DNA from: Rhodoferax koreense
GTDB taxonomy: Bacteria > Pseudomonadota > Gammaproteobacteria > Burkholderiales > Burkholderiaceae_C
Length of the DNA: 64,000 nt
Direction: 5' to 3'
NCBI RefSeq assembly: GCF_001955695.1
Contig: NZ_CP019236.1
Coordinates: forward strand, 1,922,001 to 1,986,000
The notes under the pieces were generated by a model. The model was not told where the DNA came from, did no database searches, and worked only from the letters and a program-made list of their open reading frames with translations. The position numbers and the translations under genes are program-made. Shown here piece after piece: positions 27,399 through 47,591 of this stretch (positions are counted from its first letter, which is position 1; every line of letters begins with the position of its first letter).

Positions 27399-29543
27399 AT
27401 GACAGAGCGCTTCCCTCATTCCACCATCCAGTGCCTCGCCGCGATTGCCCAACACCATGGTCTGCCGATCAATCCTGAACGTTTGATCGAGGACTATGCG
27501 CTGGCGGGGGAGGAGCCGCCACCGGCGACGGTGCTGCGCATCGCGTCCGACATCGGGCTCAAGGCCAAGGCCGACAAGCTCACCTGGGCCAGCCTGCAGG
27601 CCCAGGGCGGCGTGTTTCCGCTGATCGCGCGGCTGGCGGACAACACGGCGGTGATCGTGGTGAGCGCGCATTCCAACGGAACGAGCGAGGTGGCCATCCT
27701 CAATCCGCTGGCGGACCGGCCGACCGAGGTGCTCAGCGTCGGACAGGAGAAGTTCTGCCAGCTCTGGCACGGCGACGTGTTCCTGCTCAAACGCCAGAAC
27801 AACCTGCCCGAGCCCAGCCGCAAGTTCGGCTTTCGCTGGTTCATCCCGGAGATCATGAAACAGAAGGCGGCGCTGCGCGACATCGCCATCGCCGCCATCG
27901 CCATGCATTTCCTGGCCCTGGCCTCGCCGATCTTCTTCCAGCTGGTGATCGACAAGGTCCTCGTGCACCAGAGCATGTCCACGCTGTGGGTGCTGGGCGT
28001 GGGCATCGTGATGGCCCTGGTGTTCGACGCCCTGTTCGGCTTCCTGCGACAGATCCTCACGCTGTCGGCGAGCAACAAGATCGACATGCGGCTCACCCGC
28101 CGCACCTTCGCGCACCTGCTGTCGCTGCCGATCGACTACTTCGAGACGACGACGGCCGGCGTGATCACGCGCCACATGCAGCAGGTCGAGAAGATCCGCG
28201 CCTTCCTCACCGGCCGCATGTTCTTTTCGGTGCTGGACGCGACCTCGCTGATCATCTTCCTGCCGATCCTGTTCGCGTATTCGATGAAGCTGGCGCTGAT
28301 CACGCTGGCCTTCACCGCGATGATCTGCCTCGTCGTCGCAGCCATGGTGCCGAGTTTCAACCGAAGACTGCGCGACCTGTACAACGCCGAGGGTGAGCGC
28401 CAGTCGATGATGGTCGAGACCATCCACGGCATGCGCACGGTGAAGGCGCTGGCCATCGAGCCGGCGCAGCGCCGTCTGTGGGACCAGCGTTCGGCGCAGT
28501 CGATCAACATGCATTTCCGCGTCGGCAAGATCGCCATCACCGGTGGTGCCATCACCGACTTCCTGGGCAAGCTGCTGCCGGTGGTGATCATCGTGATCGG
28601 CGCGCAGGACGTGTTCGATCAGACGCTCACGGTGGGTGCGCTGATCGGCTTCCAGATGCTGTCGGGCCGCGTGGTGGCGCCGCTGATCGCCATCGTCGGC
28701 CTGGTCAACGAATACCAGGAGACGGCGCTGTCGGTGCGCATGCTCGGCGAGGTGATGAACCGGCCGTCCGAAGGCCGTGCCGGTGCCGGCGGGCTACGGC
28801 CGGAGCTGGCCGGCGAGATTTCCTTCGACGAGGTCACCTTCCGTTATCCGGGCTCCAGCAACGCCGCACTCGACCGCGCGAGCTTCACCATCCAGGCTGG
28901 CTCGGTGGTGGGCATCGTGGGCCGCAGCGGTTCGGGCAAGACCACGCTGACCAAATTGATCCAGGGGCTTTACGGCGTGCAGGAGGGCATCGTGCGGTTC
29001 GACCGGACCGATGCGCGCGAGATCGAACTCGCGCACCTGCGGCGGCAGATCGGCGTGGTGCTGCAGGAGAACTTCCTGTTCCGCGGCACGGTGCGCGAGA
29101 ACATCTCCGCGGCTAGGCCCGAAGCCACTTTCGAGGAGATCGTCGAGGCCGCCGAAGCGGCAGGCGCGGCCGAGTTCATCGAACGCCTGCCCCAGGGCTA
29201 CAACACCATGCTCGAGGAGAACGCGTCCAATCTTTCTGGCGGGCAGAAGCAGCGGCTGTCGATTTCGCGTTCCTTGCTGACCAAGCCGCGCATCCTGGTG
29301 CTCGACGAGGCCGCGAGCGCGCTCGACCCCGAGAGCGAGGCCATCTTCATCCGCAACCTGTCGAAGATCGCCGTGGGCCGCACCGTGGTGATGATCTCGC
29401 ACCGCCTGTCCACGCTGGTCAATGCCAACGCCATCCTGGTGATGCAGCAGGGGCGACTGGTCGATAGCGGCAAACACGCCGAGCTCCTGACGCGTTGCGA
29501 AACCTACCAACACCTATGGAACCAGCAAACAAGCCACCTGTGA
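27399..29543 (+). CDS. Type I secretion ABC transporter, HlyB-like with degenerate C39 domain
   Basis: This 714-residue inner-membrane exporter has an N-terminal C39-like domain (~1-130) in which the position of the catalytic Cys is Ser (HSTIQCLAAIAQHHG), as in HlyB-type transporters that do not cleave a leader. A six-helix membrane domain (~150-430) follows, then an ATPase domain with Walker A GRSGSGKTT (~507), signature LSGGQ (~612), Walker B ILVLDEAAS (~633) and the H-loop ISHRLS. The start at 27399 matches the usual beginning of this family; an upstream in-frame ATG at 27294 would add a basic tail without family support. The gene overlaps the HlyD gene by 28 nt. The likely substrate is the 2762-residue repeat protein encoded two genes downstream. 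Confidence 0.92.
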   Translation: MTERFPHSTIQCLAAIAQHHGLPINPERLIEDYALAGEEPPPATVLRIASDIGLKAKADKLTWASLQAQGGVFPLIARLADNTAVIVVSAHSNGTSEVAILNPLADRPTEVLSVGQEKFCQLWHGDVFLLKRQNNLPEPSRKFGFRWFIPEIMKQKAALRDIAIAAIAMHFLALASPIFFQLVIDKVLVHQSMSTLWVLGVGIVMALVFDALFGFLRQILTLSASNKIDMRLTRRTFAHLLSLPIDYFETTTAGVITRHMQQVEKIRAFLTGRMFFSVLDATSLIIFLPILFAYSMKLALITLAFTAMICLVVAAMVPSFNRRLRDLYNAEGERQSMMVETIHGMRTVKALAIEPAQRRLWDQRSAQSINMHFRVGKIAITGGAITDFLGKLLPVVIIVIGAQDVFDQTLTVGALIGFQMLSGRVVAPLIAIVGLVNEYQETALSVRMLGEVMNRPSEGRAGAGGLRPELAGEISFDEVTFRYPGSSNAALDRASFTIQAGSVVGIVGRSGSGKTTLTKLIQGLYGVQEGIVRFDRTDAREIELAHLRRQIGVVLQENFLFRGTVRENISAARPEATFEEIVEAAEAAGAAEFIERLPQGYNTMLEENASNLSGGQKQRLSISRSLLTKPRILVLDEAASALDPESEAIFIRNLSKIAVGRTVVMISHRLSTLVNANAILVMQQGRLVDSGKHAELLTRCETYQHLWNQQTSHL

Positions 29544-30907
29544 AGAAGAAGGCCTGGTGGCCCTGGCGCGGGAAGGACGGCGCCCCAGGGCGGACCATCG
29601 TCGAATACCTGCCGGACGCCGACGAGATCGAGCGCAGCCCGGTGCCGCGCTTCGCCCAGGTCACGCTGCACGTGATGGTGCTCGGCTTCGTCGCCTTCAT
29701 CGTCTGGGCCAGCGTGTCTAAGGTCGACCAGGTCATCATCGCCCAAGGGCGCCTGGTGAATCCGCTGCCCAATGTGGTGGTGCAGCCGCTGGAGACGTCC
29801 GTGATCCAGAGCGTGGACGTGCGCATCGGCCAGATCGTGAAGAAGGGCGAGCGCCTGGCCTCGCTCGACGCCACCTTCGTGCAGGCCGACGAGACCCAGT
29901 TGCGCCAGCGGCTCAACAGCCTGGAGACGCAGATCGGCGGCCTGGAGCAGGAGCTCGCCGGCGGCGCGGACACCCGCAAGGCCGCGGCGGACGGCGACAG
30001 CGACGGCCGGCTGCAGGCCAGCATCGTCAACGAGCGCAAGGCCAACTACCGCGCGCAACAGTTGAAGCTCAGCGAAAACGTCGCCCGTTTGCGTGCGGCG
30101 TTGGCGACCAACCGGCAGGACCAGCAGTTCGTCGCTTCCCGGCTCAAGTCGCTCAAGGACATCGAGGCCATGCAGGAGAGGATGGTGGCGCAGAAGTTCG
30201 GCGCGCCGCTGCAGTTGCTCGAGGCGCAGCAGCGCACCAAGGAGGTCCAGCGCGACCTCGAGCTCGTCGTCAGCCGCGAGCAGGAATTGCGCCGCGAGCT
30301 CGGCGCCTACGAGGCCGAGAAGAGCGCTTTCGAAAAAGGCTGGCGGCAGAAAACCATGGAAGACCTGCTGTCGATCTCGCGAGAGCGGGATTCCATCAAG
30401 GAACAGCTGCAGAAGGCGGACCGGCGACAGAAGCTCGTGACGCTGGCGGCACCCGTGGATGCGGTGGTGCTCGACATCGCCAAGCTGTCGCCAGGCTCCG
30501 TGGTGCGCGAGGCCGAGACCTTCTTTACGCTGGTGCCGCTGAACGTGGTGCTCGAGGCCGAGGTGCAGATCGAATCGGCGGACGTGGGCTACATCAAGAC
30601 CGGCGACCCGGTGCATGTGAAGCTGGACGCCTATCCCTTCCAGCGCCATGGCACGCTGGACGCGCAGGTGCGCACCATCAGCCAGGATGCGTTCCGGCGC
30701 GAGACGGCCGCCAAGTCCGGTGCCGATGCCTTCTACGTGAGCCGCATCGCCCTGCAGCCCACGCCGCTGAAGAACATGAAGGAGGGCGCGCGGCTGCTGC
30801 CGGGCATGACGTTGGCCGCGGAGATCGTCGTCGGTCAACGCTCGGTGATGTCCTACCTGGCCTGGCCGCTGACCAAGGGCATGAACGAAGCGATCCGGGA
30901 GCCATGA
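29516..30907 (+). CDS. HlyD-family type I secretion periplasmic adaptor
   Basis: This 463-residue adaptor has a basic cytosolic N-terminus, one membrane helix (~residues 48-66), a lipoyl half-motif around VVVQPLETSVIQSVDVRIGQ, long coiled-coil helices and a C-terminal beta-barrel with the typical YHIRIxL-like strand (FYVSRIALQ). It would link the preceding ABC transporter to an outer-membrane TolC-like channel. No TolC is in this operon; the NodT-like protein at 46167-47591 on the opposite strand is the nearest candidate. The start ATG at 29516 lies inside the end of the ABC gene, which suggests translational coupling. An alternative ATG at 29495 adds seven residues. Confidence 0.9.
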   Translation: MEPANKPPVKKKAWWPWRGKDGAPGRTIVEYLPDADEIERSPVPRFAQVTLHVMVLGFVAFIVWASVSKVDQVIIAQGRLVNPLPNVVVQPLETSVIQSVDVRIGQIVKKGERLASLDATFVQADETQLRQRLNSLETQIGGLEQELAGGADTRKAAADGDSDGRLQASIVNERKANYRAQQLKLSENVARLRAALATNRQDQQFVASRLKSLKDIEAMQERMVAQKFGAPLQLLEAQQRTKEVQRDLELVVSREQELRRELGAYEAEKSAFEKGWRQKTMEDLLSISRERDSIKEQLQKADRRQKLVTLAAPVDAVVLDIAKLSPGSVVREAETFFTLVPLNVVLEAEVQIESADVGYIKTGDPVHVKLDAYPFQRHGTLDAQVRTISQDAFRRETAAKSGADAFYVSRIALQPTPLKNMKEGARLLPGMTLAAEIVVGQRSVMSYLAWPLTKGMNEAIREP

Positions 30908-30923
30908 CCTTGCGAGCCTTGAA

Positions 30924-32825
30924 ATGAGCCCGCCCAGCAGCGCGCGCGACAAGCGCGTCTTCGCCGAGACCCTGAAGTCCGCCCGGATCGGTGTGCCCGA
31001 GGCGCAGTACGAACTCAGCCTGATGTACGCCAACGGCGTGGGCACTGCGCAGGATTTCGAACAGGCCCTGGCCTGGGTGCGCAAGGCCGCCGAGCGCGGC
31101 ATGCCTGCCGCGCAATACCTGCTCGGCACACGCTACGCGAGCGGCTCGGCCGTCGAAATGGACGAAACCCAGGCCTTCGCGTGGTTCTCCAAGGCGGCCG
31201 AACAGGGTCATTCGCGCGCGCTGTGGCGGCTCGGCCGCCTGCATGCGGCGCAGAACAAGACATTGGCCGCTGGCTGTTATGCGAAGGCTGCCGAGCTTGG
31301 CGTGGCCCAGGCGCAGCTGTCGCTCGCCGAGGCCTACGCCGCTGGCGACGGCGTGCCGCAGGATCCGGACCGGGCGTTGCACTGGTACGGACTCGCCGCG
31401 GAACAGGGATTGGCCGCCGCGCAATACGCGCTCGGCGTGATGCATGCCAAAGGCCAGGGGGTGCCGGAAGATGCGGACGAGGCCGCTTTCTGGTACCGCC
31501 GTGCGGCCGACCAGGACCATGCGCCCGCGCATGTGGCGCTGGAACTGATGGATGCCGGCGGCGAGGGACGCGCCAGGAAACGTGGCCGCGGCCGGCGCGC
31601 CGCGGGTGCGGTCGAACGGCGGCGCGGTGCCGAGCGCTGGGCCGAGGTGGCCGATCCGGGCGACGCCGATGGCCGCTACCACCTGGGCCTGATGCACGAG
31701 CTCGGCCTCGGTGTGGCGCCCGACCCGGCCCGTGCCGAAAGCTGGTACCGGTTGGCGGCGCGGCAGGACCACGCGCGCGCCCAGTCGGCATTGGGCAGGC
31801 TGCTGGAAGGCGACGGCCAGGGCACGGCCGTGGACTGGTACCGCAAGGCGGCGGAGCAGGGCGATGCGGCGGGGCAGTTCGCGCTCGGCCGGCTCTATTC
31901 GTCGGCGCAACTCGGCGAGGAGGACCACTTCCTCGGTGTGGCCTGGTACGTGCGCGCCGCGGCGCAGAACGACCCGCGTGCGCTGCTCACGCTGGGCCAC
32001 CTGTTCAGCCACGGGCTTGAGGCGATGTCCGTCGAATGTTTCAAGCGCGCGGCCGAGCAGGGCGTGGCCGAGGGCCAGTACATGCTCGGCCAGCAGCATG
32101 CGCTCGGCAAGGGGGTGCCGCGCGACCTGGCCAAGGCCTTCGACTGGTACCGGCGCGCCGCGGACCAGGGTTATGCCGCGGCCCAATCGGCCCTGGGCGC
32201 GGCCTGCCTGAGCGGTGTCGGCCTGGCCAAGGATTTCCAGCAGGCCCTGGCTTGGTTCCTCAAGGCGGCGGAGCAGGGCGATGCCAAGGCGATGTGGAAC
32301 CTGGGCGCCATGTATGCCAGCGGCGGCGATGGGCTGAAGCAGGATCTGCGACAGGCCTTCGTCTGGTGCCAGAAGGCCGCCGACCTGGGCTTCGTGCCGG
32401 CGCAGGCCACGCTCGGCGTTCTGTACGCGCGGACACAGAACCCCGAGCGCGCGCTGCAGTGCTGGACCCAGGCCGCGCAGGAGGGCGACCCCGAAGCGCA
32501 ATACAACCTCGCCGTGGCGCACGCCAGCGGGCAGGGCACCGCGCGTGACCTGGAAGCCGCCTTCGGCTGGTTCCTGCAGGCCGCGGCCCAGGGCATACCC
32601 GCTGCCCAGGCCCGGCTGGGGCTGATGTACGCCACCGGAGAAGGCGTGGCCCAGGACGCGATCGAGGCGCATCGGTGGTTCGTCCTGGCCAGTGCGGCCG
32701 GCGACAGCGCGGCGCGTGCCAACCGCAACCGGTCGGCCGCGATGCTCGATCCGGCCCAGTTGAAGGAGGCCGAGCGCCGCGCCGCGGACTGGCGCCCGGC
32801 GCGAAACACGTCGTCGCAGTTGTAA
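30924..32825 (+). CDS. Sel1-repeat protein of the type I secretion operon
   Basis: This 633-residue protein consists almost entirely of ~36-residue Sel1 (SLR/TPR-like) repeats with the usual A..LG.MY..G.G...D...A..W..KAA..G pattern. It has no signal peptide, so it is predicted to be cytosolic. An Arg-rich insertion (~residues 208-235, RKRGRGRR...) interrupts the array. Sel1 proteins scaffold complexes. It lies 16 nt after the HlyD gene and upstream of the giant repeat protein, so a chaperone or assembly role for that substrate, or for its modification, is a reasonable inference. No catalytic motif was seen. Confidence 0.85.
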   Translation: MSPPSSARDKRVFAETLKSARIGVPEAQYELSLMYANGVGTAQDFEQALAWVRKAAERGMPAAQYLLGTRYASGSAVEMDETQAFAWFSKAAEQGHSRALWRLGRLHAAQNKTLAAGCYAKAAELGVAQAQLSLAEAYAAGDGVPQDPDRALHWYGLAAEQGLAAAQYALGVMHAKGQGVPEDADEAAFWYRRAADQDHAPAHVALELMDAGGEGRARKRGRGRRAAGAVERRRGAERWAEVADPGDADGRYHLGLMHELGLGVAPDPARAESWYRLAARQDHARAQSALGRLLEGDGQGTAVDWYRKAAEQGDAAGQFALGRLYSSAQLGEEDHFLGVAWYVRAAAQNDPRALLTLGHLFSHGLEAMSVECFKRAAEQGVAEGQYMLGQQHALGKGVPRDLAKAFDWYRRAADQGYAAAQSALGAACLSGVGLAKDFQQALAWFLKAAEQGDAKAMWNLGAMYASGGDGLKQDLRQAFVWCQKAADLGFVPAQATLGVLYARTQNPERALQCWTQAAQEGDPEAQYNLAVAHASGQGTARDLEAAFGWFLQAAAQGIPAAQARLGLMYATGEGVAQDAIEAHRWFVLASAAGDSAARANRNRSAAMLDPAQLKEAERRAADWRPARNTSSQL

Positions 32826-33271: not shown

Positions 33272-36200
33272 ATGAGTAACGTTAGCGGCTTTACGACCAG
33301 TGCCATCGCGGCGCTGACGACGACTCAGATCCAGGCCCTCACGACCGATGACATCGCGTCGCTGACCACGGCGCAGGTCCAGGCGCTGACCACCAGCCAG
33401 ATTCCGGCGTTCAAGACCAACCAGGTCTCGGCCTTCACCACCGCGGGCATTGCCGCGCTGACGACCACCCAGGTCGCGGCCTTCGAAACCACCGACATCG
33501 CGGTGCTGAAGACCTCGCAGACCGCCGTGCTCAACACCGCGCAGATCGGCGCGCTGACCACGGCGCAGATCGGCGCACTCACCACGGCCGGCATCGCCGC
33601 GCTGACCACGGCGCAGGCGCAGGCCCTGACCACCAGCCAGATCGTTGCGCTCAAGACGAACCAGATCCAGGCGCTGACCACGGCTGGCGTCGCCGCGCTG
33701 ACGACGACCCAGGTGGCCGCCATCGAGACCTCCGACGTGGCCGCGCTCACCACCGGCCAGGTCGCGGTGTTGACCACCGCGCAGGTGCAGGCCCTAACCA
33801 CGGCGCAGATCGTCGGCCTGACCACGGCCGGTATTTCCTCGCTCACCACGGCCGGTGTGGCGGCGCTGACCACCACGCAGGTCGCGGCGATCGAGACCGT
33901 AGACATTGCCGCGCTCAAGACCACCCAGGTGGCGGCGCTCAGCACCGCCGATGTGGCCGTACTGAGCACCGCCCAGGTCGGTGCGCTGACCACCGCGGGC
34001 GTGGCCACGCTGAACACCGCCCAGGCCCAGGCGCTGAGCACCGCGCAGGTCGTGGCGCTCAACACCAACCAGATCCAGGCGCTGACCACCGCCGCCGTGG
34101 CCGCATTGACGACCACGCAGGTGGCCGCCATCGAAACCGTCGACGTCGCCGCGCTCAAGACCAGCCAGGTCGCTGCGCTCAACACCGCGAACGTGGCCGC
34201 GCTCACCACCGCCCAGGTCGGCGCGCTCACCACGGCTGGCGTCGCCGCGCTCACGACGAGCCAGGCGCAGGCGTTGACCACCGCCCAGATCGTCGCACTC
34301 CAGACCAACCAGATCCAGGCCATCACCACCGCCGGCGTGGCCGCGCTGACGACGAGCCAGGTCGCTGCCATCGAGACCCGCGACATTGCCGTGTTGACCA
34401 CCGCCCAGGTCGGCGTGCTCAACACCGCCCAGGTCCAGTCGCTCACCACGGCGCAGGTGCAGGCGCTGACCACGGCCGGCATCGCTGCCGTGAGCACGGC
34501 CGGCATTGCGGCGCTGACCACCACGCAGGTCGCCGCCATCGAGACGGCCGACATCGCCGCGCTCAAGACCACCCAGGTCGCCGTGCTCAACACCGCCGAC
34601 GTGGCCGTGCTCAGTACCGCGCAGGTGCAGGCGCTGACCACCGGTAGCGTGGCCGTGCTGAGCACCGCGCAGGTGCAGGCCTTGACCACCGCGCAGGTCG
34701 TCGCGCTGAAGACCGACCAGGTGCAGGCCATCACCACCGCCGGTGTGGCGGCGCTGACCACCACGCAGGTGGCCGCGATCGAAACCACCGACATCGCCGC
34801 GTTGAAGACCACGCAGGTCGCGGCGCTGAACACCGCCAGCATTGCCGCGCTGACGACCGCCCAGGTGCAGGCCATCACCACGGCCGGCGTCGGCGTGCTC
34901 AACACCGCCCAGGCCCAGGCCCTGACGACCGCGCAGGTCGTGGCGCTCAAGACCAATCAGGTCGGGGTGTTGTCGACCGCTGCCGTCGGCGCCTTGACCA
35001 CGGCCCAGGTCGCGGCCATCGAAACGGTGGATGTCGCATCGCTCCAGACCAACCAGGCTGCGGTGCTGACCACGGCCCAGATCCAGGCCCTGACGACCGC
35101 GCAGATCGCCGGGTTGACCACGGCCGGCATCGCCGCGCTGACCACGGCCGGCATTGCCGCGCTGACCACCTCGCAGGCCCAGGCCATCGAGACCGTCGAC
35201 ATCGCCGCGCTGCGCACCACGCAGGTCGCCGCGCTGAACACCGCCGACCTGGCCGTGCTGAGCACCGCCCAGGTGGCGGCGATCACCACCGCCGGCGTGG
35301 CTGTGCTGACCACGGCACAGGTCCAGGCGCTGACCACGGCGCAGATCGCCGGCCTCACCACCAACCAGGTGCAGGCGCTGACCACCGCCGGCGTGGCCGC
35401 GCTCACCACCGCCCAGGTGGCGGCCATCGAGACCGTCGATGTGGCCGCATTGCGCACAGCACAGGTGGTGGCGCTGAACACGGCCAACGTGGCCGCGCTG
35501 ACGACGGCCCAGGTCGGCGCGCTGACCACGGCCGGCGTCGCCGCGCTGACGACCACGCAGACCCAAGCGTTGACCACGGCCCAGATCGTCGCCTTGAAGA
35601 CCAACCAGATCCAGGCGCTGACGAATGCCGACGTGGCCGCGCTGACCACCGCCCAGGTGGCCGCCATCGAGACCACCGACATCGCCGCGCTCACCACGGG
35701 GCAGATCGCCGCGCTGACCACGGCCCAGGTGCAGGCGTTGACCACGGCCCAGTTGGTTGCGTTCACCACCGCCGGCATCTCGGCGCTGACCACGGCGGGC
35801 ATCGCTGCGCTGACGACGACGCAGGTGGCCGCCATCGAGACGGCCGACATCGCCGCGCTGAAGACCACGCAGGTGGCGGCCTTGACGACGGCCGAAGTCG
35901 GCGTGCTCACGACGGCGCAGATTGCCGCGTTGACCACCGGCGGCATCGCCGCGCTGAACACCGCGCAGGTGCAGGCCCTGACGACCGCGCAGATCGTGGC
36001 CTTGAAGACCAGCCAGATCGATTCGCTCACCACCGCGGCTATCGCCGCGTTGACGACGGCCCAGGTCGCGGCCATCGAAACCGCCGACATCGCCGTGCTC
36101 GACACCGCCCAGGTGCGCGCGCTCAATACCGCCGACATCGCCGTGCTCAGCACCGCCCAGGTCGGCGCGCTGACCACCGGCGGCGTCGCCGCGCTGACCA

Positions 36201-39200
36201 CCGCGCAGGTGCAGGCGCTGACGACAGCCCAGATCGTCGCCCTCAAGACGAACCAGGTGCAGGCGCTGACGACCACGGAAATCGGCGCATTGACCACGGC
36301 CCAGGTGGCCGCCATCGAGACCACCGACGTCGCGGCGCTGACCACGGGGCAGGTCGCGGCACTGACCACCACCCAGGTGCAGGCGCTGACGACCGCGCAG
36401 GTCGTGGCGCTGACCACGGCCGGCATCTCGGCGCTGACCACGGCCGGCGTGGCTGCGTTGACCACCACCCAGGTCGCGGCCATCGAAACCGCGGACATCG
36501 CCGCGCTCAAGACCACGCAGGTCGCGGTGCTGACCACGGCCGACGTGGCCGTGTTGACCACGGCGCAGATCCAGGCGCTGACCACGGCCGGCGTCGCCGC
36601 GTTGACCACCACGCAGGCCCAGGCGCTGACCACGGCGCAGATCGTGGCGCTGAAGACCAGCCAGATCGAAGCCCTCACGGCGACCGCCATCGGTGCGCTG
36701 ACGACCGCCCAGGTCGCCGCCATCGAGACCGTCGACATCGCTGCGCTCGAGACCAGCCAGGTCGTGGCCCTGAACACGGCCGACATCGGCGTGTTGTCCA
36801 CGGCCCAGGTGCAGGCGCTGACCACTGCCGGCGTCGGCGTGTTGAGCACGGCGCAGGCGCAGGCGCTGACCACCGCGCAGATCGTGGCGCTGAAGACGGA
36901 CCAGGTGCAGGCGCTGTCGACCGCTGCCATCGCCGCGCTGTCAACCGCGCAGGCCGCAGCCATCGAAACCGCCGACATCGCCGCGCTGAAGACCACGCAG
37001 GTCGCGGTGCTGAACACGGCCGACGTGGCCGCGTTGACCACGGCCCAGATCCAGGCACTGACCACCGCCGGCGTCGCTGCCCTGACGACGACGCAGGTGC
37101 GCGCGCTCGGCACCGACCAGATCGTCGCGCTCAAGACGAGCCAGATCCAGGCCCTCACCACCGCCGAAGTGGCCGCATTGACCACGGCGCAGGTCGCGGC
37201 GGTCGAAACCGTCGACGTGGCCGCGTTCACCACCGCCCAGGTCGGCGTGCTGAACACGGCCCAGGTACAGGCCTTGACGACCGCGCAGGTCGTGGCGCTG
37301 ACCACCGCCGGCATCGCCGCGCTGACCACCGCCGGTGTGGCCGCGTTGACGACGACGCAGGTGGCGGCGATCGAGACAGCCGACATTGCCGCGTTGAAGA
37401 CGACACAGGTCACCGCGCTGACCACGGCCGACGTAGCAGTGCTGAGCACGGCCCAAGTAGGTGCGCTCACCACGGCTGGCGTTGCATCGCTGACCACGGC
37501 GCAGGTGCAGGCGCTGACCACGGCGCAGATCGTGGCCCTCAAGACCGGCCAGATCGAGGCGTTGACCACCGCCCAGGTGGCCGCGCTCACGACGGCGCAG
37601 GTCGCCGCGGTCGAGACCGTCGACATCGCCGCGCTGGAAACCGGCCAGGTGGCCGCGCTCAACACGGCGCAGGTGCAGGCGCTGACCACGGCCCAGGTGG
37701 TGGCGCTGACCACGGCCGGCATCGCCGCCCTCACCACAGCCGGTGTGGCCGCGTTGACGACGGCCCAGGTGGTCGCCATCGAAACCGCCGACATCGCGGC
37801 GCTGAAGACGACGCAGGTGGCCGCACTCAACACCGCCGACGTGGCCGTGCTGACCACGGCGCAGATCGCCGCGCTGACCACCGGCGGCATCGCCGCGTTG
37901 AACACGGCGCAGGTGCAGGCGCTGACCACGGCACAGATCGTCGCGCTGAAGACCAGCCAGGTCGACGCGCTGACCACCAACGCCATCGCCGCGCTGACCA
38001 CGACCCAGGTGGTGGCGATCGAGACCGCCGACATCGCCGTGCTCGACACCGCCCAGGTGCGTGCGCTGAACACGGCCGACATCGCCGTGCTCACCACGGC
38101 GCAGGTCGGTGCGCTCAGCACCGGCGGCATTGCCGCGCTGACCACGGCCCAGGCGCAGGCCTTGACCACAGCCCAGATCGTGGCGCTCAAGACCAGCCAG
38201 ATCCAGGCCCTGACCACGGCCGACGTGGCCGCGCTGACCACGGCCCAGGTCGCGGCCATCGAGACCGTGGACATCGCCGCATTGACCACCGGCCAGGTCG
38301 GCTCGCTGACGACCGCACAGGTGCAGGCGCTCACCACGGCCCAGGTCGTGGCGCTGACGACGGCCGGCATCGCCGCCCTCACCACGGCCGGTGTGGCCGC
38401 CTTGACGACGGCCCAGGTGGTCGCCATCGAAACCGCCGACATCGCCGCGCTGAAGACCACGCAGGTCGCAGCCCTGAACACGGCCGACGTGGCGGCTTTG
38501 ACCACCGCACAGATCGCCGCGCTGACCACCGGCGGCGTGGCCGTGCTGAACACCGCGCAGGTGCAGGCGCTGACCACGGCGCAGATCGTGGCGCTGAAGA
38601 CCAGCCAGATCGACGCATTGACCACCAACGCCATCGCCGCCTTGACGACGGCACAGGTCGCCGCGTTCGAGACCGCCGACATCGCGGTGTTCGACACCGC
38701 CCAGGTGCGCGCACTCAACACCGCCGACGTGGCCGCGCTGACTACCGCGCAGGTCGGTGCGCTGAGCACGGCGGGTGTGGCTGCGCTCACCACAGCGCAG
38801 GTGCAGGCGCTCACGACCGCGCAGATCGTGGCCCTCAAGACGAGCCAGGTGCAGGCCTTGACCACGGTAGAAGTGGGTGCGCTGACCACCACGCAGATCG
38901 CGGCCATCGAGACCGCCGACATCGCGGCACTGTCCACCAACCAGGTCGGTGCGTTGACCACCGCGCAGGTGCAGGCCCTGACGACGGCCCAGGTCGTCGC
39001 GCTGACCACCGCCGGCATCGCCGCACTGACCACGGCCGGCGTGGCCGCGTTGACCACGACGCAGGTCGCCGCCATCGAGACCGCCGACATCGCCGCCTTG
39101 CGCACCGCGCAGCTGGTCGCCCTGACGACGGCCGATGTGGCGGTGCTCACCACAGCCCAGGTCGCAGCGCTCACCACCGGCAGCGTGGCCGCCCTGACCA

Positions 39201-41560: not shown

Positions 41561-41604
41561 CGGCCAGGGGAGGCCGCAAGGTCTCTCCCGGCTCGGCCGC
41601 CGCC

Positions 41605-41637
41605 ACCCGCGGGTCTTCCAGGCCTGCGGGTTTTTTT
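41605..41637 (+). terminator. Rho-independent terminator of the repeat-protein gene
   Basis: A GC-rich hairpin (arms CCCGCGGG.. and ..CCTGCGGG) is followed by seven T residues, 45 nt after the stop of the giant repeat gene. It abuts the TAA of the convergent glycosyltransferase gene and has a T run only on the plus strand. Confidence 0.8.
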
Positions 41638-42931
41638 ATGCGCCGATGGCGGAGTACGGCGCGCAGATCACCGTGAAGGCCTGCGACGGCTCGGCCAGCG
41701 CGGCCCGGGCCTCGGCCGTGTCGTAATCCACCACCACCCGCAAGCCTTGCACGCTGAGCCGTGCGGGGTGCCGCGTCAGGCGCAACTGCGCAAACCATTC
41801 GACGAGCACCAGCTGGCGCGCGGCGCCTGGCGCATCCCCGGCTGCGCGTTCGGCGCAGGCCAGGTAGTCGTCGTCCGCTGGCGCGTGAGCCGGCTCGTAC
41901 GGCACACATCGCAGCGCGGGCATGTGTTGCCGGACCTCGGCAAGCACCGCTTCCAATGGCGGCGAAGCGATGACGTGCAGCGTCGCGGCCTGGGTGTCGC
42001 GCACCACGGCGCCAAGGCGCTGCACCAGGAAGTCGTGCATGAAGTGGTGTTCGCACTTCAGCAGCAGGCTGTCGTCGGGCTGGCCCAGTGCCGTCCAGCG
42101 CCGCAGGAACATCCACAGCAGGTACGGCGACTTCTGGCCTACTGCCATGCGCGCGGCCTGGAAGTACAGGGTGTGCAGCAGCTTCTGCCGCGCGCCGGGC
42201 AGCGCCTCGGGCGGCAGCAGATCGAGGCAGCTGGCCACCGCCAGTTCGATGTCGGCGTTGGCCATGTCGAGGAACCAGGCCTCGCCCATGCGGCTGGTCA
42301 GGCTGTTGCCGTTGGTCAGGTGCTGGAAAAAAGGCTTGTCGACCACGCACAGGTCGCCCTGCGCGAGCAGCGTGAAGTACAGCGGGATCAGCGTGCCGGT
42401 GCGGTCCAGGTAGGCGCAGTGGCGTTCGAACACCTCGCGGCGCAGGATGGGGTGGCCGTCGCAGATCGACAGGTTCTGCAGCAGCGCGGCCTGCGCCCCG
42501 CGCGGCACGAGCGTGGCCACCGCGCCGCTGTAGTCGATGCGCAGGGCGGCATCGAGCTGGCGCAGGCTCAGGTACTGCCCGATCACCGCCACGACGGACG
42601 GCGTGCCGTCCATGATGCTGGCGGCCAGGCCGAGCGCCTGCTCGAACACCATGTCGTCGTCGTTGAGGATGTAGATGAACCGCCGCGTGGCGCGGCGCAG
42701 CAGCGCATCCATGTTGCGGGCGAAGCCGATGTTCTCGGCGTGCCGCAGGTAGACGAGGTGCGCGAACTGTGGCTGCATCTCGGCCACCACATCCGGCGTG
42801 TCGTCGGTGGAGGCGTTGTCGCCCACCAGCACCTCGAAGCGCGGGTCCTCGAACGCAGCGAGGTGCGCGAGGCAACGCCGCAGCAACGGCGCGCGGTTGA
42901 AGCTCGGGATGCAGATGCTGAAATCGATCAT
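41636..42931 (-). CDS. Family 2 (GT-A) glycosyltransferase
   Basis: This 431-residue protein has an N-terminal GT2 fold: the start FSICIPSFNRAPLL, the nucleotide-binding GDNASTDDTPDV (~37-49) and a DxD-type metal motif ILNDDD (~91-96). Such enzymes transfer a sugar from a nucleotide-sugar. The C-terminal ~200 residues match nothing I recognise. It is the last gene of the five-gene operon; its ATG overlaps the stop of the methyltransferase gene in ATGA, so translation is coupled. The acceptor could be a glycan built on the giant threonine-rich protein encoded convergently; this is inferred from context only. Confidence 0.85.
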   Translation of the reverse strand: MIDFSICIPSFNRAPLLRRCLAHLAAFEDPRFEVLVGDNASTDDTPDVVAEMQPQFAHLVYLRHAENIGFARNMDALLRRATRRFIYILNDDDMVFEQALGLAASIMDGTPSVVAVIGQYLSLRQLDAALRIDYSGAVATLVPRGAQAALLQNLSICDGHPILRREVFERHCAYLDRTGTLIPLYFTLLAQGDLCVVDKPFFQHLTNGNSLTSRMGEAWFLDMANADIELAVASCLDLLPPEALPGARQKLLHTLYFQAARMAVGQKSPYLLWMFLRRWTALGQPDDSLLLKCEHHFMHDFLVQRLGAVVRDTQAATLHVIASPPLEAVLAEVRQHMPALRCVPYEPAHAPADDDYLACAERAAGDAPGAARQLVLVEWFAQLRLTRHPARLSVQGLRVVVDYDTAEARAALAEPSQAFTVICAPYSAIGA

Positions 42932-43509
42932 GCCGCGCCGGCCGTGGCTGGTTTGCGCACCGTCCAGGTGATGTGGTATTCGGCGATCACGTTGTTCAGC
43001 TCACGCGCGCGTTCGTTGAGCTGGTCCATGCTGAGCTCTCCGCTGGCGTACTTCTGGTAGTACACCGGGTCGAGCACGGTGGTGAGCTGCGAGATCCAGA
43101 AATCGACGCCGATGTAGTGCGCCAGCGGCGTGGCCGAGGAGATGCCGCCCGCGGCCCATTCGTCGTTCTTCTGCCGGTCGAACAGCGTGAGCGACTGCGG
43201 CGTGATCGGCCGCACATGGGTCGGGTCGCCGAGGTAGTTGTCGTGGCGCGGGTGCGGCACGTGGATGGCGATCACCGCGCCGTTACGGCACACGCGGTAG
43301 AGCTCGCGGATGATGTTGAGGTAGGTCTCGGTGTCGCGGCCCATGTGTTCGAGCGAATGGATGAACTTCACCTCGTCCACGGAATCGTTTTCCCACGGCC
43401 ACGGCGTGGCTTCGAGGTCGACCACGAGGTCGGTGGTGGCGGTGGGGTATTTGTCGACATTGAGGAAACCGTCGATGGTTTTGGCGCCGCTGCCGAGGTT
43501 GAGTTTCAT
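42928..43509 (-). CDS. SAM-dependent methyltransferase (class I-like)
   Basis: This 193-residue protein starts MKLNLGSGAKTIDGFLNVD, the glycine-rich SAM-binding loop of small methyltransferases found in glycan gene clusters. It also has an acidic second-strand motif (VVDLEATPWPW) and the typical HSLEH segment followed by ELYRVCRNGAVIAIHVPHPRHD. The start ATG at 43509 places this loop at the N-terminus, as usual for the family; upstream in-frame codons show no such support. It lies 22 nt after the GT9-like gene and overlaps the GT2 gene by four bases. It may methylate a sugar, possibly as a cap (inference). Confidence 0.85.
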   Translation of the reverse strand: MKLNLGSGAKTIDGFLNVDKYPTATTDLVVDLEATPWPWENDSVDEVKFIHSLEHMGRDTETYLNIIRELYRVCRNGAVIAIHVPHPRHDNYLGDPTHVRPITPQSLTLFDRQKNDEWAAGGISSATPLAHYIGVDFWISQLTTVLDPVYYQKYASGELSMDQLNERARELNNVIAEYHITWTVRKPATAGAA

Positions 43510-43531
43510 GGCCTGCTTTCGGTGTCGGTGA

Positions 43532-44245
43532 TTATCTGAATTGCCAGTTGTTCCTGAACACCGGCGTGAAGCCGATGTCCGAGCGCAGGAAGAGGAACTT
43601 CCGGGCGCAGAGGTCGAGTTGTTCGGCCAGGTTGGCGAAGCAGCTGTCCACGCAGGCGAACAGCGAGGCACGCTCGATCACGCCGAGCCAGTCGAACGGG
43701 TTGCTCGAGAGTTCGCTGATGCGCACGACCTGGTGCGACGCGGTGATGTCGGGTGGCAGCTCGATCTGCAGCCGGAAGTTGGAGCCGAATTCGTGCAGCA
43801 GGGCGTAAGGGCCTCGGATGTCGAGCCACTCGAACAGCGCCTGTTCACGCGCTGCATCGCGGCTCACGCGCAGCTGCCACTTGCGCGCGAACGGCACGCC
43901 GGCGACGGCGTATTTGTATTCGTCGAACTTCAGCGACTTCGCGAGTCTGGCGTTCACCACGTCCAGGCCCGAGAGGTAGGAGTAGAGGCAGAAAACCTGT
44001 TCGCAGCCAGCGGCCTGCAGCAGTGCCGCCGGCGTGTCGTAGAAGTAGGCGCGCGTGGCATCGCCGGTTTCGCCGGTGTCCACCGCGAGGAACCGGATCT
44101 CTGGAAACGCCGCCTGCACGAAAGGCTGGAAGCGCCTATCGACCGGCCACAGCACTTCGTGGCCCTGATCCACGAAGTGCTGGGCGATGGGCGCGGCGAT
44201 GACGATGTCGCCGATGCCACGGGTCTGGATCAGTCCGATGCGCAA
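43532..44245 (-). CDS. GT9-like glycosyltransferase (heptosyltransferase-related)
   Basis: This 237-residue protein begins MRIGLIQTRGIGDIVIAAPIA, the N-terminal signature of the GT9/heptosyltransferase GT-B family. It has a C-terminal acceptor-side segment with ISELSSNPFDWLGVIERASLFACVDSCFANLAEQL, similar to the GT9 nucleotide-sugar region. It is shorter than typical GT9 enzymes (~320-350 aa), so part of the C-terminal domain is reduced. Its start overlaps the end of the SPINDLY-type gene by 16 nt. Sugar donor and acceptor cannot be read from sequence. Confidence 0.75.
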   Translation of the reverse strand: MRIGLIQTRGIGDIVIAAPIAQHFVDQGHEVLWPVDRRFQPFVQAAFPEIRFLAVDTGETGDATRAYFYDTPAALLQAAGCEQVFCLYSYLSGLDVVNARLAKSLKFDEYKYAVAGVPFARKWQLRVSRDAAREQALFEWLDIRGPYALLHEFGSNFRLQIELPPDITASHQVVRISELSSNPFDWLGVIERASLFACVDSCFANLAEQLDLCARKFLFLRSDIGFTPVFRNNWQFR

Positions 44246-46131
44246 GTTCGACTCCGTGGCAGGCCGATTTCATCGGTCACGTCGCCGAGTTCCTGGGCGC
44301 GCCACATGGCGATGAAGACGGCTTCGAGGTTGCTGCAGAAGCGGCCGGTGTCGAACAGCGCGTGTGTCTGCGCATGCGCCGCCACCTTGGCTTTCACCGC
44401 GGCCAGGGCCGCCGGCTCGCGCGCCAGCGAAAGCGCCAGCGCCTCGTAGCCGGCCAGGCTGTGCGCCACGAGCTCGGGCACGCCGAGCGCATGCAGCAGG
44501 CTGCCGGCCACGCGTGCGGGGAAGGCGCCGCCCATGTAAGTCACCACCGGCAGACCGGCCATCAGCGCGTCCGCCGCGGTGGTGTGGGCGTTGTAGGGAT
44601 GCGTGTCGAGGAACAGGTCGGCCTGGCGGTAGCGCGCGAGGTGGTCTTCCACCAGCGGCACGCGGCCCGCGAAGATGAGCCGCGCCGCGTCGATCCCGCG
44701 CGCCTCGGCCTCGCGGCGCAGGTTGCGCTGCGCCACCTCGCCGCGCGAAACCAGCCACAACACGCTGCCGGGCACCTGCGCCAGCAGGCGCATCCATACG
44801 TCGAACACCGGCGGCGAGATCTTGTAGTCGTGGCTGAACGAGCAGAACACGAAGCCGTGTTCGGGCAGGCCGCATTCGGCGCGGCTCGGCGTGTGTTCCG
44901 AGATGCGCACGCTGTTGTCGGTCGGCAGGTAGGTGTCGGGCAGGTAGGCGACGCGCTCGGTGTAGAACGCCTGGTGTTCGGGCGGGATGGTGTGGCGGTC
45001 GGCCACGATGTAGTCATGGTAGGGCGTGCCCATGCTGCCGGGGTAGCCGAGGTAGTTGACCTGCACCGGCGCCGGGCGGTGCGCGAAGATGTCGGTGCGC
45101 GTGTCCGAGGTGTAGCCGCCCAGGTCGACGGCGATATCGACCTCCATCTCGCGCATCAGGGCGGCGATCTCCACCGAGCCCATGGCGCGCGCGTCGACGA
45201 AGCGGTCGAAGGCCTGCGTCATGCGCGCGCGCAACCGGCTCTGGTCGTCAACGCCCAGCGAGATGGCGATGGTCTCGAAACGCGCCTTGTCGTGCCGCTC
45301 GAAAACCCCCGCCATCAGGTGGCCCACCGGGTGCTCGCGGAAGTCGGGCGACACATAGGCCAGGCGGATTTTGCGATGACGGTCGCGTTCACCGTTCCAC
45401 AACACCACGGGCTTGGGTGGGCAGTAGTGGCTGGCGAATATCTTGGCGGCCTGCAGGTGGTCGGCGGCGTTGTCCGAGGCCGACATGAAGGCCAGCGACT
45501 TGCAACTGCGCCGGCCCGCGCGCACGCCGTCGGTCAGGCGCTGGGTGAGGCCGTCGAAGTCGCGCCAGTCGCAGAGGTGCATGCGTTCGTAGAACAGCAG
45601 GCCGGGTGCGTAGTCGTAGCCGGGCGCGAGTTCGAGCAGGCGCTCGAAGGCCTTGATCGCCTGTTCGCTCTGCTTGAACTCGGTGAGCAGGATGCCGAAG
45701 TTGCCGAGCGCGGTGACGTGGTTCGGATCGAGCGTCACGACGCGGTTGAAACGCTCCAGCGCCTCCTGATGGCGGAACATGTTGCGCAGCAGCACACCGC
45801 TGTTGAGCAGGGCCTCCACGTGGTCGGGTTGCAGCGCCAGCGCGGCGTCGAAGCTTTGCAGCGCTTCTACCTTGCGGTCCAGCGCCTGCAGCACGGCACC
45901 GTGCACATAGTGCAGCGGCGCGAACTGCGGGTTGTGCAGAAGGCCGCGTTCGCACAGCGCCAGCGCCGCCTGGACGTTGCCGCCCTGCATCGCGATCACG
46001 GTGAGCGAGTAGAGCGCGGCGGCGTTGTGGCTGTCGGCGGCCAGCACCTCGTGGAACAGCGCTGCGGCGGCCTCGGGCTGGGCCTGGTTCTGCAGGCCGA
46101 TGGCGCGGATCAGGGTTTCAGTGACGGACAT
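44230..46131 (-). CDS. TPR / SPINDLY-type O-GlcNAc transferase-like protein (GT41)
   Basis: The N-terminal ~200 residues are tetratricopeptide repeats. The C-terminal ~400 are the GT41 catalytic region, with KIRLAYVSPDFREHPVGHL, DLGGYTSDTRTDIFAHRPAP, NYLGYPGSMG, FCSFSHDYKISP, the sugar-nucleotide site region around FAGRVPLVEDHLARYRQAD, and FLDTHPYNAHTTAADAL. Eukaryotic OGT and bacterial relatives glycosylate Ser/Thr (or Asn in HMW1C) of proteins, using TPRs to hold substrate. ATG 46131 is chosen; a GTG at 46170 overlapping the upstream stop (GTGA) would add 13 residues. Its place between an outer-membrane channel gene and two further glycosyltransferases, facing a ~600-Thr repeat protein, makes it the best candidate for modifying that protein. 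Confidence 0.88.
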   Translation of the reverse strand: MSVTETLIRAIGLQNQAQPEAAAALFHEVLAADSHNAAALYSLTVIAMQGGNVQAALALCERGLLHNPQFAPLHYVHGAVLQALDRKVEALQSFDAALALQPDHVEALLNSGVLLRNMFRHQEALERFNRVVTLDPNHVTALGNFGILLTEFKQSEQAIKAFERLLELAPGYDYAPGLLFYERMHLCDWRDFDGLTQRLTDGVRAGRRSCKSLAFMSASDNAADHLQAAKIFASHYCPPKPVVLWNGERDRHRKIRLAYVSPDFREHPVGHLMAGVFERHDKARFETIAISLGVDDQSRLRARMTQAFDRFVDARAMGSVEIAALMREMEVDIAVDLGGYTSDTRTDIFAHRPAPVQVNYLGYPGSMGTPYHDYIVADRHTIPPEHQAFYTERVAYLPDTYLPTDNSVRISEHTPSRAECGLPEHGFVFCSFSHDYKISPPVFDVWMRLLAQVPGSVLWLVSRGEVAQRNLRREAEARGIDAARLIFAGRVPLVEDHLARYRQADLFLDTHPYNAHTTAADALMAGLPVVTYMGGAFPARVAGSLLHALGVPELVAHSLAGYEALALSLAREPAALAAVKAKVAAHAQTHALFDTGRFCSNLEAVFIAMWRAQELGDVTDEIGLPRSRTCASD

Positions 46132-46166
46132 GGGTATGGATTCTGCACGCACGGGCGAGGTGGCTG

Positions 46167-47591
46167 TCACCGCGCCGAAAGCGTGACTTCGTTGCCCTGC
46201 GTGCCGCCGCCGAGCGCCTTGTACAGCGAGGCGGCGGCCTCGAGTTGCGCGCGGCGGATCTGGGTGTTGATCTGCAAAGCGCCCATCACTTCGCGTTCGC
46301 TCTCCAGCACGTCGAGGTAGCCGGTCATGCCGCCGTCGAAGCGCGCGCGCGCGATCTCCAGTCGGCGGCGCTGGGCGCGCAGGTTGGCCTCGGAGGCCCG
46401 CATCTGCACCGCCAGCGAAGCGCGTGCCGAAAGCTGGTCGGACACTTCGCGGAACGCGAGCTGGATGGTTTTTTCGTAATCGGCCACGGCCACGACCTCG
46501 CGCGCCTTGGCCACGTCGAGACTGGCCTCGCCGCGGCCGCCGTCGAAGATCGGCAGCGAGATCACCGGCTGGAAGGCCCAGGCACCGGCGTTGAACAGGC
46601 TGGCGAGGCCGGAGCTGGCCGCGCCGATGCCGGCGGTGAGCAGGATCTTGGGCAGAAAGGCGGCACGCGCCGCGTCGATATTGGCATGCGCCGCCACGAG
46701 GCGTTGTTCGGCGGCCATGACGTCGGGCCGCATCAGCAGCACCTCGCCCGGCATGCCGGCGGTGAGTTCGCTGTCGAGCCCCTGCTGGTCGAGTCTCTTG
46801 CCCGGTGGCATGGCTGCGGGTTCGCCGCCGACGAGGTAGTTGAGCCAGTTCATCGCCACCGTGCGCTGGTGGTCGAGCGCGGCGAGGTTGGCGCGCGAGG
46901 CTTCCAGCAGGCCCTCGGCCTGTTCGAGTTCGAAATCGTAGGCGGCGCCGATCTTGCGGCCCTCGTTGACCAGCGCCAGCGAGTTCTCGCGCGAGGTCAC
47001 GGTGGCGCGGGCGAGCGCCGTGAGCTCGTTCATCTGCAGCAACGTGTAGTAGGCGGTGGCCACGTCAGCGACCAGCGAGAGGTGCACGGCGCGGCGCGCT
47101 TCCTGCGAGGCCAGGAAACTGCGTCGGGCGGCGTCCGACAGGCCGGCCAGCCGGCCCCAGAAATCCACCTCGTACGACACGGCGGACAAGGTGAGGTCGA
47201 AACGCCGGTTGCTGGCACTGGTGTCCAGGTCGGACTGCGTGTGCGTGACGCTGGCCTGGCCGATGAGGTTGACGGTGGGGGTGCGGTCGGCGCGCACGAT
47301 GCCCCATTGCGCGCGTGCTTCCTCGACCCGCGCCGCCGCCACGCGCAGGTCGCGGTTCTGCTCGAGCGCCTGGGTGATCAGCGCCTGCAGCCGTGGGTCG
47401 GTGAAGAAATGACGCCAGTGCGTCTTGACGGCTTCGCGCTGGCCCGTGGTCGCGCCGCCCACGACAGAAGCCGGCCACTGGGCTGGCACCGGCAGCGGTG
47501 GACGCTGGAGTTCGGGCGAGCCGGCGCAACCGGCCAGGATGGCCGCCAGCGCGGCAGGCGCGCGGCGCAGCAGGGACGAGACGAAGGCCAT
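46167..47591 (-). CDS. NodT-family outer-membrane channel lipoprotein (TolC-like)
   Basis: This 474-residue protein has a lipoprotein signal peptide ending LAGC (lipobox Cys ~residue 22). Two halves follow, each with long coiled helices and beta strands typical of outer-membrane efflux proteins (PxxVxxxxxxxxxxVxxA...ARAQWG near residue 95; EVDFWGRL near 145). NodT proteins form trimeric outer-membrane channels, normally for RND pumps. Here it heads a glycosyltransferase operon and lies near a type I ABC-HlyD pair that lacks its own TolC, so it may serve that exporter (inference). Confidence 0.88.
   Translation of the reverse strand: MAFVSSLLRRAPAALAAILAGCAGSPELQRPPLPVPAQWPASVVGGATTGQREAVKTHWRHFFTDPRLQALITQALEQNRDLRVAAARVEEARAQWGIVRADRTPTVNLIGQASVTHTQSDLDTSASNRRFDLTLSAVSYEVDFWGRLAGLSDAARRSFLASQEARRAVHLSLVADVATAYYTLLQMNELTALARATVTSRENSLALVNEGRKIGAAYDFELEQAEGLLEASRANLAALDHQRTVAMNWLNYLVGGEPAAMPPGKRLDQQGLDSELTAGMPGEVLLMRPDVMAAEQRLVAAHANIDAARAAFLPKILLTAGIGAASSGLASLFNAGAWAFQPVISLPIFDGGRGEASLDVAKAREVVAVADYEKTIQLAFREVSDQLSARASLAVQMRASEANLRAQRRRLEIARARFDGGMTGYLDVLESEREVMGALQINTQIRRAQLEAAASLYKALGGGTQGNEVTLSAR

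What the first reader, a model, noticed from the sequence alone, without database searches (positions are those of the whole stretch)
27399..47591. Candidate glycosylated giant exoprotein system: type I exporter, ~600-Thr octad protein and a SPINDLY/GT9/GT2/methyltransferase/NodT operon
A type I ABC-HlyD pair and a Sel1 protein precede a 2762-residue protein made of Thr-rich octads with a type-I-secretion C-terminal domain. Convergent with it is an overlapping operon encoding an outer-membrane channel, a GT41 (O-GlcNAc-transferase-like) enzyme, two more glycosyltransferases and a methyltransferase. GT41 enzymes modify proteins, and HMW1C shows an analogous enzyme-adhesin pair. The simplest reading is cytosolic O-glycosylation of the repeat Thr residues, extension and methyl-capping of the glycan, then export through ABC-HlyD-NodT. 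I know of no described system with this combination, but I could not search for one.
Basis: partly seen in the sequence, partly recalled or inferred. Interest (0 to 1): 0.85.

Follow-up and report, generated by a model that had tools for sequence, protein, structure and literature searches.

The report
Sugar-coated giant repeat protein export system
This stretch encodes a giant protein of about 300 near-identical eight-residue units with a threonine at almost every turn, together with its own exporter and a protein-glycosylating enzyme; the same partners recur together in many other bacteria, which suggests that the protein is decorated with sugars before it is sent to the cell surface.

Summary
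The 2762-residue protein has about 305 octads in one register (531 Thr); the repeat is Pfam ALTTAQ_rpt (PF20080), which no paper in the searched library names. Its C-terminal domain has the FrpC self-processing fold but lacks the scissile Asp. Beside it lie a type I ABC-HlyD pair, a Sel1 protein and a NodT-GT41-orphan-methyltransferase-GT2 operon; 'GT9' is unconfirmed.

The main new evidence is comparative. In 200 family genomes, all 39 octad genomes (strict cut-off) hold a GT41; in 19 of 29 the best octad match lies within 40 kb of one (about 1 expected). GT41s of octad loci form two clades, apart from flagellin-adjacent GT41s. One clade, mostly in a GT41-ABC-HlyD-(TolC) cassette, occurred only in octad genomes (36 of 36). 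The window's clade recurs beside octads in other genera. In a Janthinobacterium MAG octad, ABC, HlyD, GT41, methyltransferase and amino-sugar genes follow one another on one strand.

Best reading: a dedicated system that O-glycosylates octad Thr/Ser in the cytosol, then exports the protein by type I secretion. Glycan, sites and role are inferred, not shown.

The parts
27399..29543 (+). type I secretion ABC transporter (HlyB-like, C39-like N-terminal domain); start uncertain
   Evidence: PF00664/PF00005/PF03412; best NCBIfam TIGR01846 643 bits, below its 725.55 cut-off; 86% identical gene beside octads in same-genus G162
29540..30907 (+). HlyD-type membrane fusion protein
   Evidence: TIGR01843 288.7 bits against 208.65; overlaps the ABC gene by 4 bp
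30924..32825 (+). Sel1-repeat protein
   Evidence: PF08238, 10 stretches; 55% identical gene between NodT and octads in G162
33272..41560 (+). giant octad (ALTTAQ) protein, 2762 aa
   Evidence: PF20080 1973 bits; register statistics
33272..40612 (+). octad array, about 305 units, predicted helical solenoid (one short helix per octad)
   Evidence: AlphaFold model that covers the last 208 array residues, block pLDDT mostly 93-98
40625..41140 (+). FrpC self-processing-module-like Ca2+ domain with Thr in place of the scissile Asp
   Evidence: 6sjw match; residue before the Pro is T 32, S 16, D 1 in 49 junctions, window (T) included
41636..42931 (-). GT2 glycosyltransferase
   Evidence: PF00535 80.2 bits
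42928..43509 (-). class I methyltransferase-like protein
   Evidence: LNLGSG motif (sequence; family meaning recalled); PF08241 E=0.0037, below cut-off; in Rhodoferax MAG L218 the gene after GT41 is a PF08241 methyltransferase
   Evidence: no family hit; homologue in only 1 other of 200 family genomes, G043, 59%
44230..46131 (-). TPR + GT41 (OGT/SPINDLY-like) glycosyltransferase, clade B
   Evidence: PF13844 280.9 bits; XcOGT 2jlb E 1.1e-96, human OGT and SPINDLY; His, Lys, HTT and Asp motif residues kept (their roles recalled)
46167..47591 (-). NodT/TolC-family outer-membrane channel
   Evidence: TIGR01845 343 bits against 210; NodT directly upstream of GT41 also in G012, L218, L223, L224, L241

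Best explanation
A self-contained glycoprotein export system. The TPR-GT41 enzyme binds the unfolded octad polypeptide in the cytosol and transfers a sugar to the hydroxyls that recur at the turn of every octad (two Thr/Ser positions per unit; about 300 to 500 candidate sites). Neighbouring genes (here the GT2, the orphan and a methyltransferase; elsewhere FdtA/DegT/acyltransferase amino-sugar genes) supply or extend the glycan and differ between species. The ABC-HlyD pair with a NodT/TolC channel then exports the chain, C-terminus first as is usual for type I substrates (recalled). Outside, Ca2+ folds the FrpC-like C-terminal domain and the octads stack into a long helical solenoid with a hydroxyl, presumably glycan-bearing, ridge: a secreted or surface mucin-like rod. 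Shown: genes, repeat regularity, fold similarity, co-occurrence, linkage, clade specificity, kept motif residues. Inferred: glycosylation, its sites, the sugar, the order of steps, NodT as channel, surface role.
For: All 39 octad genomes (E<=1e-12) of 200 in the family have GT41, against 75 of the other 161 (Fisher 1.1e-11). Best octad match within 40 kb of a GT41 in 19 of 29 located genomes, 0.99 expected; in one of the 19 (G005) that GT41 is flagellin-type. Clade A GT41 in 36 of 200; all 36 have octads, 4 of them only at E<=0.001; 18 of 19 control genomes with other GT41s have none at that cut-off. 25 of 29 clade A tree rows lie in a GT41-ABC-HlyD-(TolC) cassette, also in octad genomes whose octads are elsewhere. 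Octad GT41s fall in two supported clades (29 rows, 6 rows, both 99), flagellin-adjacent ones elsewhere. Window-type GT41 (>=55% identity): octads in the fetched flank in 13 of 28 loci, against 0 of 16 more distant loci, no flagellin hit in any of the 44; the 13 include Thiobaca trueperi, Azospira and a Geobacter MAG. L220: octad-ABC-HlyD-GT41-methyltransferases-FdtA-acyltransferase-DegT on one strand. Outside the family, G563 has GT41 just downstream of octads. Acceptor suited to O- not N-linkage: 560 Thr, 2 N-X-S/T. One octad position is T or S in 89% of 11,424 octads of relatives.
Against: No direct evidence of glycosylation. The recurrent Thr could be purely structural: it opens each short helix in the model, where Thr/Ser cap helices anyway (recalled). 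Much of the clade A linkage sits at one shared chromosomal site, so the genomes are not independent. Flagellin genes also occur in four of the 30 fetched octad or octad-candidate stretches (G012, G005, G056, G184). In G012, which has a window-type GT41, they lie directly upstream of NodT-GT41, so that enzyme might act on flagellin too. 8 of 28 window-type loci show neither octads nor an ABC of >=55% identity in the fetched flank. G302 has octads and GT41 only on different contigs. The extension genes of the window have no counterpart by tblastn in most related loci.
Confidence: 0.72

Rival explanations
1. GT41 is linked to the octad/exporter locus but modifies something else, for example flagellin (as FlmG does) or the exporter itself; octad Thr are only helix-capping residues.
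For: Flagellin-adjacent GT41s are common in the same family: 10 of 20 loci fetched from octad-negative genomes and 10 of 20 further GT41 loci fetched from octad genomes. G012 has flagellin genes upstream of NodT-GT41. Thr sits at the helix start.
Against: Octad-type and flagellin-adjacent GT41s form different clades, and many octad genomes carry both kinds. The two GT41s near octads that fall in the flagellin part (G005, G056) have flagellin genes beside them. There is no flagellin hit in the 64-kb window or in any of the 44 loci. Clade A occurred only with octads (36 of 36).
Confidence: 0.13
2. Shared islands for surface-polysaccharide synthesis: GT41, GT2, methyltransferase and amino-sugar genes build a capsule or lipopolysaccharide glycan, and the octad adhesin is a passenger in a variable locus.
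For: Sugar-nucleotide and GT genes vary between species, as in polysaccharide loci.
Against: No polymerase or flippase was met among the island proteins that I annotated (a sample, not a search for them). Characterised GT41 enzymes act on proteins (OGT, SPINDLY, HMW1C; partly recalled, HMW1C PMC3012730 abstract in listing). The link is to the exporter and octads, at several unlike sites and gene orders.
Confidence: 0.1
3. GT41 is present but degenerate or regulatory, and the octad protein is exported unmodified.
For: Nothing specific; I know of no biochemistry for this clade (recalled).
Against: The His, Lys, HTT and Asp motif residues are intact in the window and in all 6 clade B rows.
Confidence: 0.05

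Closest known systems
FlmG TPR glycosyltransferase with flagellins (Caulobacter, PMC7591256, passages read)
   Same: TPR + GT-B cytosolic enzyme that binds an exported protein through its TPR part and modifies Thr before export
   Different: Substrate here is a giant repeat protein with a type I exporter; the GT41 clade is separate from flagellin-adjacent GT41s. The passages do not call FlmG GT41; Caulobacter vibrioides does ring for PF13844, gene not identified
HMW1C-HMW1 (Haemophilus; PMC3012730, abstract start seen in listing)
   Same: Cytosolic glycosyltransferase paired with a large secreted adhesin (GT41 class recalled)
   Different: N-linked, two-partner secretion; here 2 N-X-S/T against 560 Thr, NGT profile 18.9 bits against 1000, and a type I exporter
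Serine-rich repeat adhesins with GtfA/GtfB and accessory Sec (Gram-positives; recalled)
   Same: Hydroxyl-rich giant repeat protein, cytosolic first-sugar transferase, variable extension enzymes, dedicated exporter
   Different: Unrelated enzymes, exporter, repeat and fold
FrpC/ApxIVA self-processing module (PMC7078468, passages read)
   Same: Fold and EF-hand-like Ca2+ motifs of the C-terminal domain
   Different: Scissile Asp replaced by Thr/Ser at 48 of 49 junctions read (one of G139's two keeps Asp); module is C-terminal, after octads, without RTX repeats in the window protein
Pfam PF20080 ALTTAQ_rpt
   Same: The repeat itself
   Different: The entry names only the repeat as far as the tool shows; partners and export are not part of it

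Membership tests
PF20080 ALTTAQ_rpt | Profile score above the gathering cut-off | tested here: met
   1973 bits against 26.4, 83 stretches
GT41 (OGT/SPINDLY/XcOGT) | PF13844 above cut-off, with TPR repeats | tested here: met
   280.9 bits against 25; TPR families
GT41 (OGT/SPINDLY/XcOGT) | Active-site His and UDP-site Lys, HTT (roles recalled from OGT work) | tested here: met
   Present in the window and all 6 clade B rows
GT41 (OGT/SPINDLY/XcOGT) | Transfer of sugar to protein Ser/Thr | not testable with these tools
   Needs biochemistry
HMW1C/NGT | NGT equivalog profile; N-X-S/T-rich acceptor | tested here: not met
   NF049992 18.9 bits against 1000; 2 N-X-S/T
FlmG-type flagellin glycosyltransferase | Clusters with flagellin-adjacent GT41s; flagellin gene beside it | tested here: not met
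   Window GT41 in a 6-row octad clade (99); no flagellin hit in the 64-kb window; but clade B member G012 has flagellins upstream
Type I secretion system | ABC of HlyB type + HlyD + TolC-family channel in one locus | tested here: met
   HlyD TIGR01843 and NodT TIGR01845 above cut-off; ABC best TIGR01846 but below that subfamily's cut-off
Type I secretion system | The octad protein is secreted by these three proteins | not testable with these tools
   Needs a secretion assay
RTX protein | GGxGxDxUx nonapeptide repeats | tested here: not met
   0 GGxGxD
FrpC self-processing module | SPM fold | tested here: met
FrpC self-processing module | Asp-Pro scissile bond | tested here: not met
   Thr-Pro in the window; T 32, S 16, D 1 of 49 junctions
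GT9 (orphan 43532-44245) | Pfam/NCBIfam profile or fold match | tested here: inconclusive
   No hit; model pLDDT 44

The most novel reading that the evidence does not exclude
A bacterial counterpart of mucins: a widespread family of giant type-I-secreted proteins whose helical octad solenoid carries hundreds of O-linked glycans put on in the cytosol by dedicated GT41 clades, with species-specific extension and amino sugars, and with a mostly disarmed FrpC module as the Ca2+-triggered folding and export end. Two GT41 clades and two exporter types serve it, and its scattered occurrence (Burkholderiales, Thiobaca, a Geobacter MAG) suggests that enzyme, exporter and substrate travel together.
Probability: 0.55. 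Interest if true: 0.85.

Novelty: new variant of a known kind. Interest (0 to 1): 0.72.

Why it matters
GT41 enzymes (OGT, SPINDLY) are intensively studied, but few bacterial substrates are known and I recall no described type I secretion system with a dedicated O-glycosylation enzyme. A natural acceptor with hundreds of near-identical sites, genetically tied to its enzyme, would be a simple model for how GT41 picks acceptors and whether a type I channel passes glycosylated chains. It would also give a likely function to an undescribed repeat family and to a set of bacterial 'TPR/GT41 protein' annotations.
Full report
WHAT IS THERE. The plus strand carries ABC (27399-29543), HlyD (29540-30907), Sel1 (30924-32825) and, 446 bp later, the octad gene (33272-41560). 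The minus strand carries NodT (46167-47591), GT41 (44230-46131), an orphan (43532-44245), a methyltransferase-like protein (42928-43509) and GT2 (41636-42931), at distances of +35, -16, +22 and -4 bp; the two units end 75 bp apart. The ABC matches the HlyB subfamily best but stays below its curated cut-off; HlyD and NodT exceed theirs.

THE OCTAD PROTEIN. The array is about 305 octads of consensus T-[AST]-[QDG]-[VI]-x-A-L-[T/E/K/N] in one register; position 0 is Thr in 98% and position 7 in 59%; there is a superperiod of 27 octads; the protein has no Cys and only 2 N-X-S/T. Thr is 20.3% of the whole protein against 2.1-8.3% in the nine other proteins measured. AlphaFold predicts each octad as a 5-6-residue helix followed by a 2-3-residue turn; block pLDDT over the 208 modelled array residues is mostly 93-98, with 84 at the start and 74-84 next to the C-terminal domain. 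The conserved Thr opens the helix. Foldseek and VIA-align found no convincing structural relative for this solenoid. After the array comes a domain 47-48% identical to the FrpC self-processing module. FrpC cuts its own Asp414-Pro415 bond (PMC7078468, passages read). At 49 octad-protein junctions the residue before the Pro is Thr 32, Ser 16 and Asp 1 (one of two in G139); the window has Thr. So here the domain probably keeps only Ca2+ folding. Many relatives end in a DDE...PLI-like tail; the window's protein does not.

CO-OCCURRENCE. In 200 genomes sampled from the window's family, octads (E<=1e-12) occur in 39 and GT41 (E<=1e-20) in 114; all 39 octad genomes are among the 114, against 75 of the other 161 (Fisher 1.1e-11, which ignores relatedness). 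In 398 genomes of a phylum sample octads occur in 3, the own genome included. The other two also hold GT41: G563 just downstream of its octads, G302 on other contigs.

LINKAGE. One search gave the best octad match of 29 of the 38 other octad genomes. In 19 of 29 a GT41 lies on the same contig within 40 kb; 0.99 expected if GT41 genes were placed at random, P about 4e-22 without correction for relatedness. In one of the 19, G005, that GT41 is of the flagellin type. In G160 and G182 another octad match, not the best one, is near a GT41, and in G162 a second octad contig has one about 4 kb away. G149's is 70 kb away. By my count from the handles the 19 cover 16 of 22 genera. Six genomes with unlinked octads (G133, G154, G028, G127, G143, G195) hold a GT41-ABC-HlyD cassette elsewhere.

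TWO OCTAD CLADES OF GT41. A tree of 85 GT41 catalytic domains (SH-aLRT support, midpoint root) has clade A (29 rows, 99) and clade B (6 rows, 99: window, G012, G159, G139, G046, G184), both made only of rows from octad loci or octad-genome cassettes. The 22 flagellin-adjacent enzymes lie in another part (a 32-row branch, 96, with 8 of unknown context and 2 near octads). Those two, G005_1 and G056_1, have flagellin genes beside them as well, and both genomes hold a clade A enzyme too. Whether A and B are sisters is unresolved. In 25 of 29 clade A rows the GT41 is followed by ABC and HlyD, and mostly by a TolC-type protein. A clade A query finds 36 of 200 genomes; 32 are among the 39 octad genomes, and the other four (G011, G116, G144, G167) show octads at E<=0.001. 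Of 19 GT41-positive controls without clade A, 18 show none and G058 shows 7 weak matches. Of 20 GT41 loci fetched from octad-negative genomes, 10 have flagellin hits and none has the cassette or octads; of 20 further GT41 loci fetched from octad genomes (19 from relatives, 1 from the own genome), 10 have flagellin hits and 7 are the cassette.

THE WINDOW'S OWN TYPE ELSEWHERE. A scan of genome contigs with the window GT41 gave 44 loci. Of 28 with >=55% identity, 13 show octads or the octad C-terminal domain in the fetched flank and 7 more an ABC of >=55% identity; of 16 with lower identity none shows either (Fisher for octads 0.0013). None of the 44 has a flagellin hit. The 13 include Pseudorhodoferax Leaf265 and Leaf274 (NodT-GT41 then convergent octads, as here), Thiobaca trueperi DSM 13587, Azospira sp. 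I13 and a Geobacter MAG. In L220 (Janthinobacterium MAG; octad gene open at the contig end) the order on one strand is octad, 344 bp, ABC (73% to the window's), HlyD, GT41 (69-70%), two methyltransferases, an unassigned protein, FdtA, a hexapeptide acyltransferase, a DegT aminotransferase and DUF5672, with overlaps or gaps of at most about 55 bp from ABC on. In the same-genus G162 NodT, Sel1 and octads lie on one strand at a contig end, and octads, ABC and HlyD on one strand at the end of another contig.

VARIABLE SUGAR GENES. Between cassette and octads lie genes that differ by species; by annotated representatives they are FdtA/WxcM-type proteins (cluster c9, 13 stretches), DegT aminotransferases (c6, 15 stretches), GT2, hexapeptide acyltransferases and epimerases. 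FdtA/FdtB/FdtC make dTDP-3-acetamido-3,6-dideoxyhexose in S-layer glycan pathways (recalled). The window has GT2, the orphan and a methyltransferase in that place; a Rhodoferax MAG (L218, GT41 83%) has NodT-GT41-methyltransferase. This suggests one conserved first transfer and variable decoration.

ENZYME. Nearest solved relatives are XcOGT, human OGT and SPINDLY. The His of the HP motif, the Lys and the HTT...D motif are intact in the window and in clade B; clade A reads GTT...D in the motifs printed. The donor sugar cannot be told from this.

MECHANISM. See Best explanation. FlmG is the closest precedent for the first step: its TPR part binds flagellins and it glycosylates them in the cytoplasm (PMC7591256, passages and abstract start read). 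Export through a type I channel after glycosylation is inferred from gene order.

LIMITS. The genomes are related, and many clade A islands share one chromosomal site (2-hydroxyacid dehydrogenase/chromate transporter/UPRTase side in 13-14 stretches, GntR/methylmalonyl-CoA mutase side in 9). Independence rests on clade B, on the different gene orders and on the hits outside the family; several of those are MAG contigs. There is no biochemical evidence. Novelty statements rest on the searches in an open-access library only.

Noticed in passing
window 4320-26144 (-): A 7274-aa giant protein with an N-terminal LEPR-XLL domain (NF012209), divergent from the type I ABC gene; 2223 bp starting at 8041 are repeated exactly starting at 12529. 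It could be a second substrate of the same exporter.
   Followed up: partly
own genome G000:C1:1038032-1045726 (L208): One 2565-aa open frame holds four tandem GT41 domains with Arg in place of the conserved Lys and a GTT...E motif; G302 has a 3781-aa frame with four.
   Followed up: partly
L169-L207: Flagellin-adjacent GT41 genes are common in this family (10 of 20 loci from octad-negative genomes); likely FlmG-type flagellin glycosyltransferases.
   Followed up: partly
gene calls of G174, G007 and G062: Some octad genomes carry a second, shorter octad protein with an N-terminus like MLGWLSKRLLTLF and the same C-terminal module.
   Followed up: no
L128 6936-10139 (G012): Two flagellin genes and a third 501-aa ORF lie upstream of NodT-GT41-GT1/methyltransferase-GDP-mannose dehydratase, convergent with octads. 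The enzyme may have two acceptors there.
   Followed up: partly
G139 (L130/L131): One of two octad C-terminal modules keeps Asp before the Pro, as in FrpC, so clip-and-link may survive in one lineage.
   Followed up: no
L112 and other clade A islands: The octad island occupies the same chromosomal site in many genomes, with very different contents: a variable surface-structure hotspot.
   Followed up: partly
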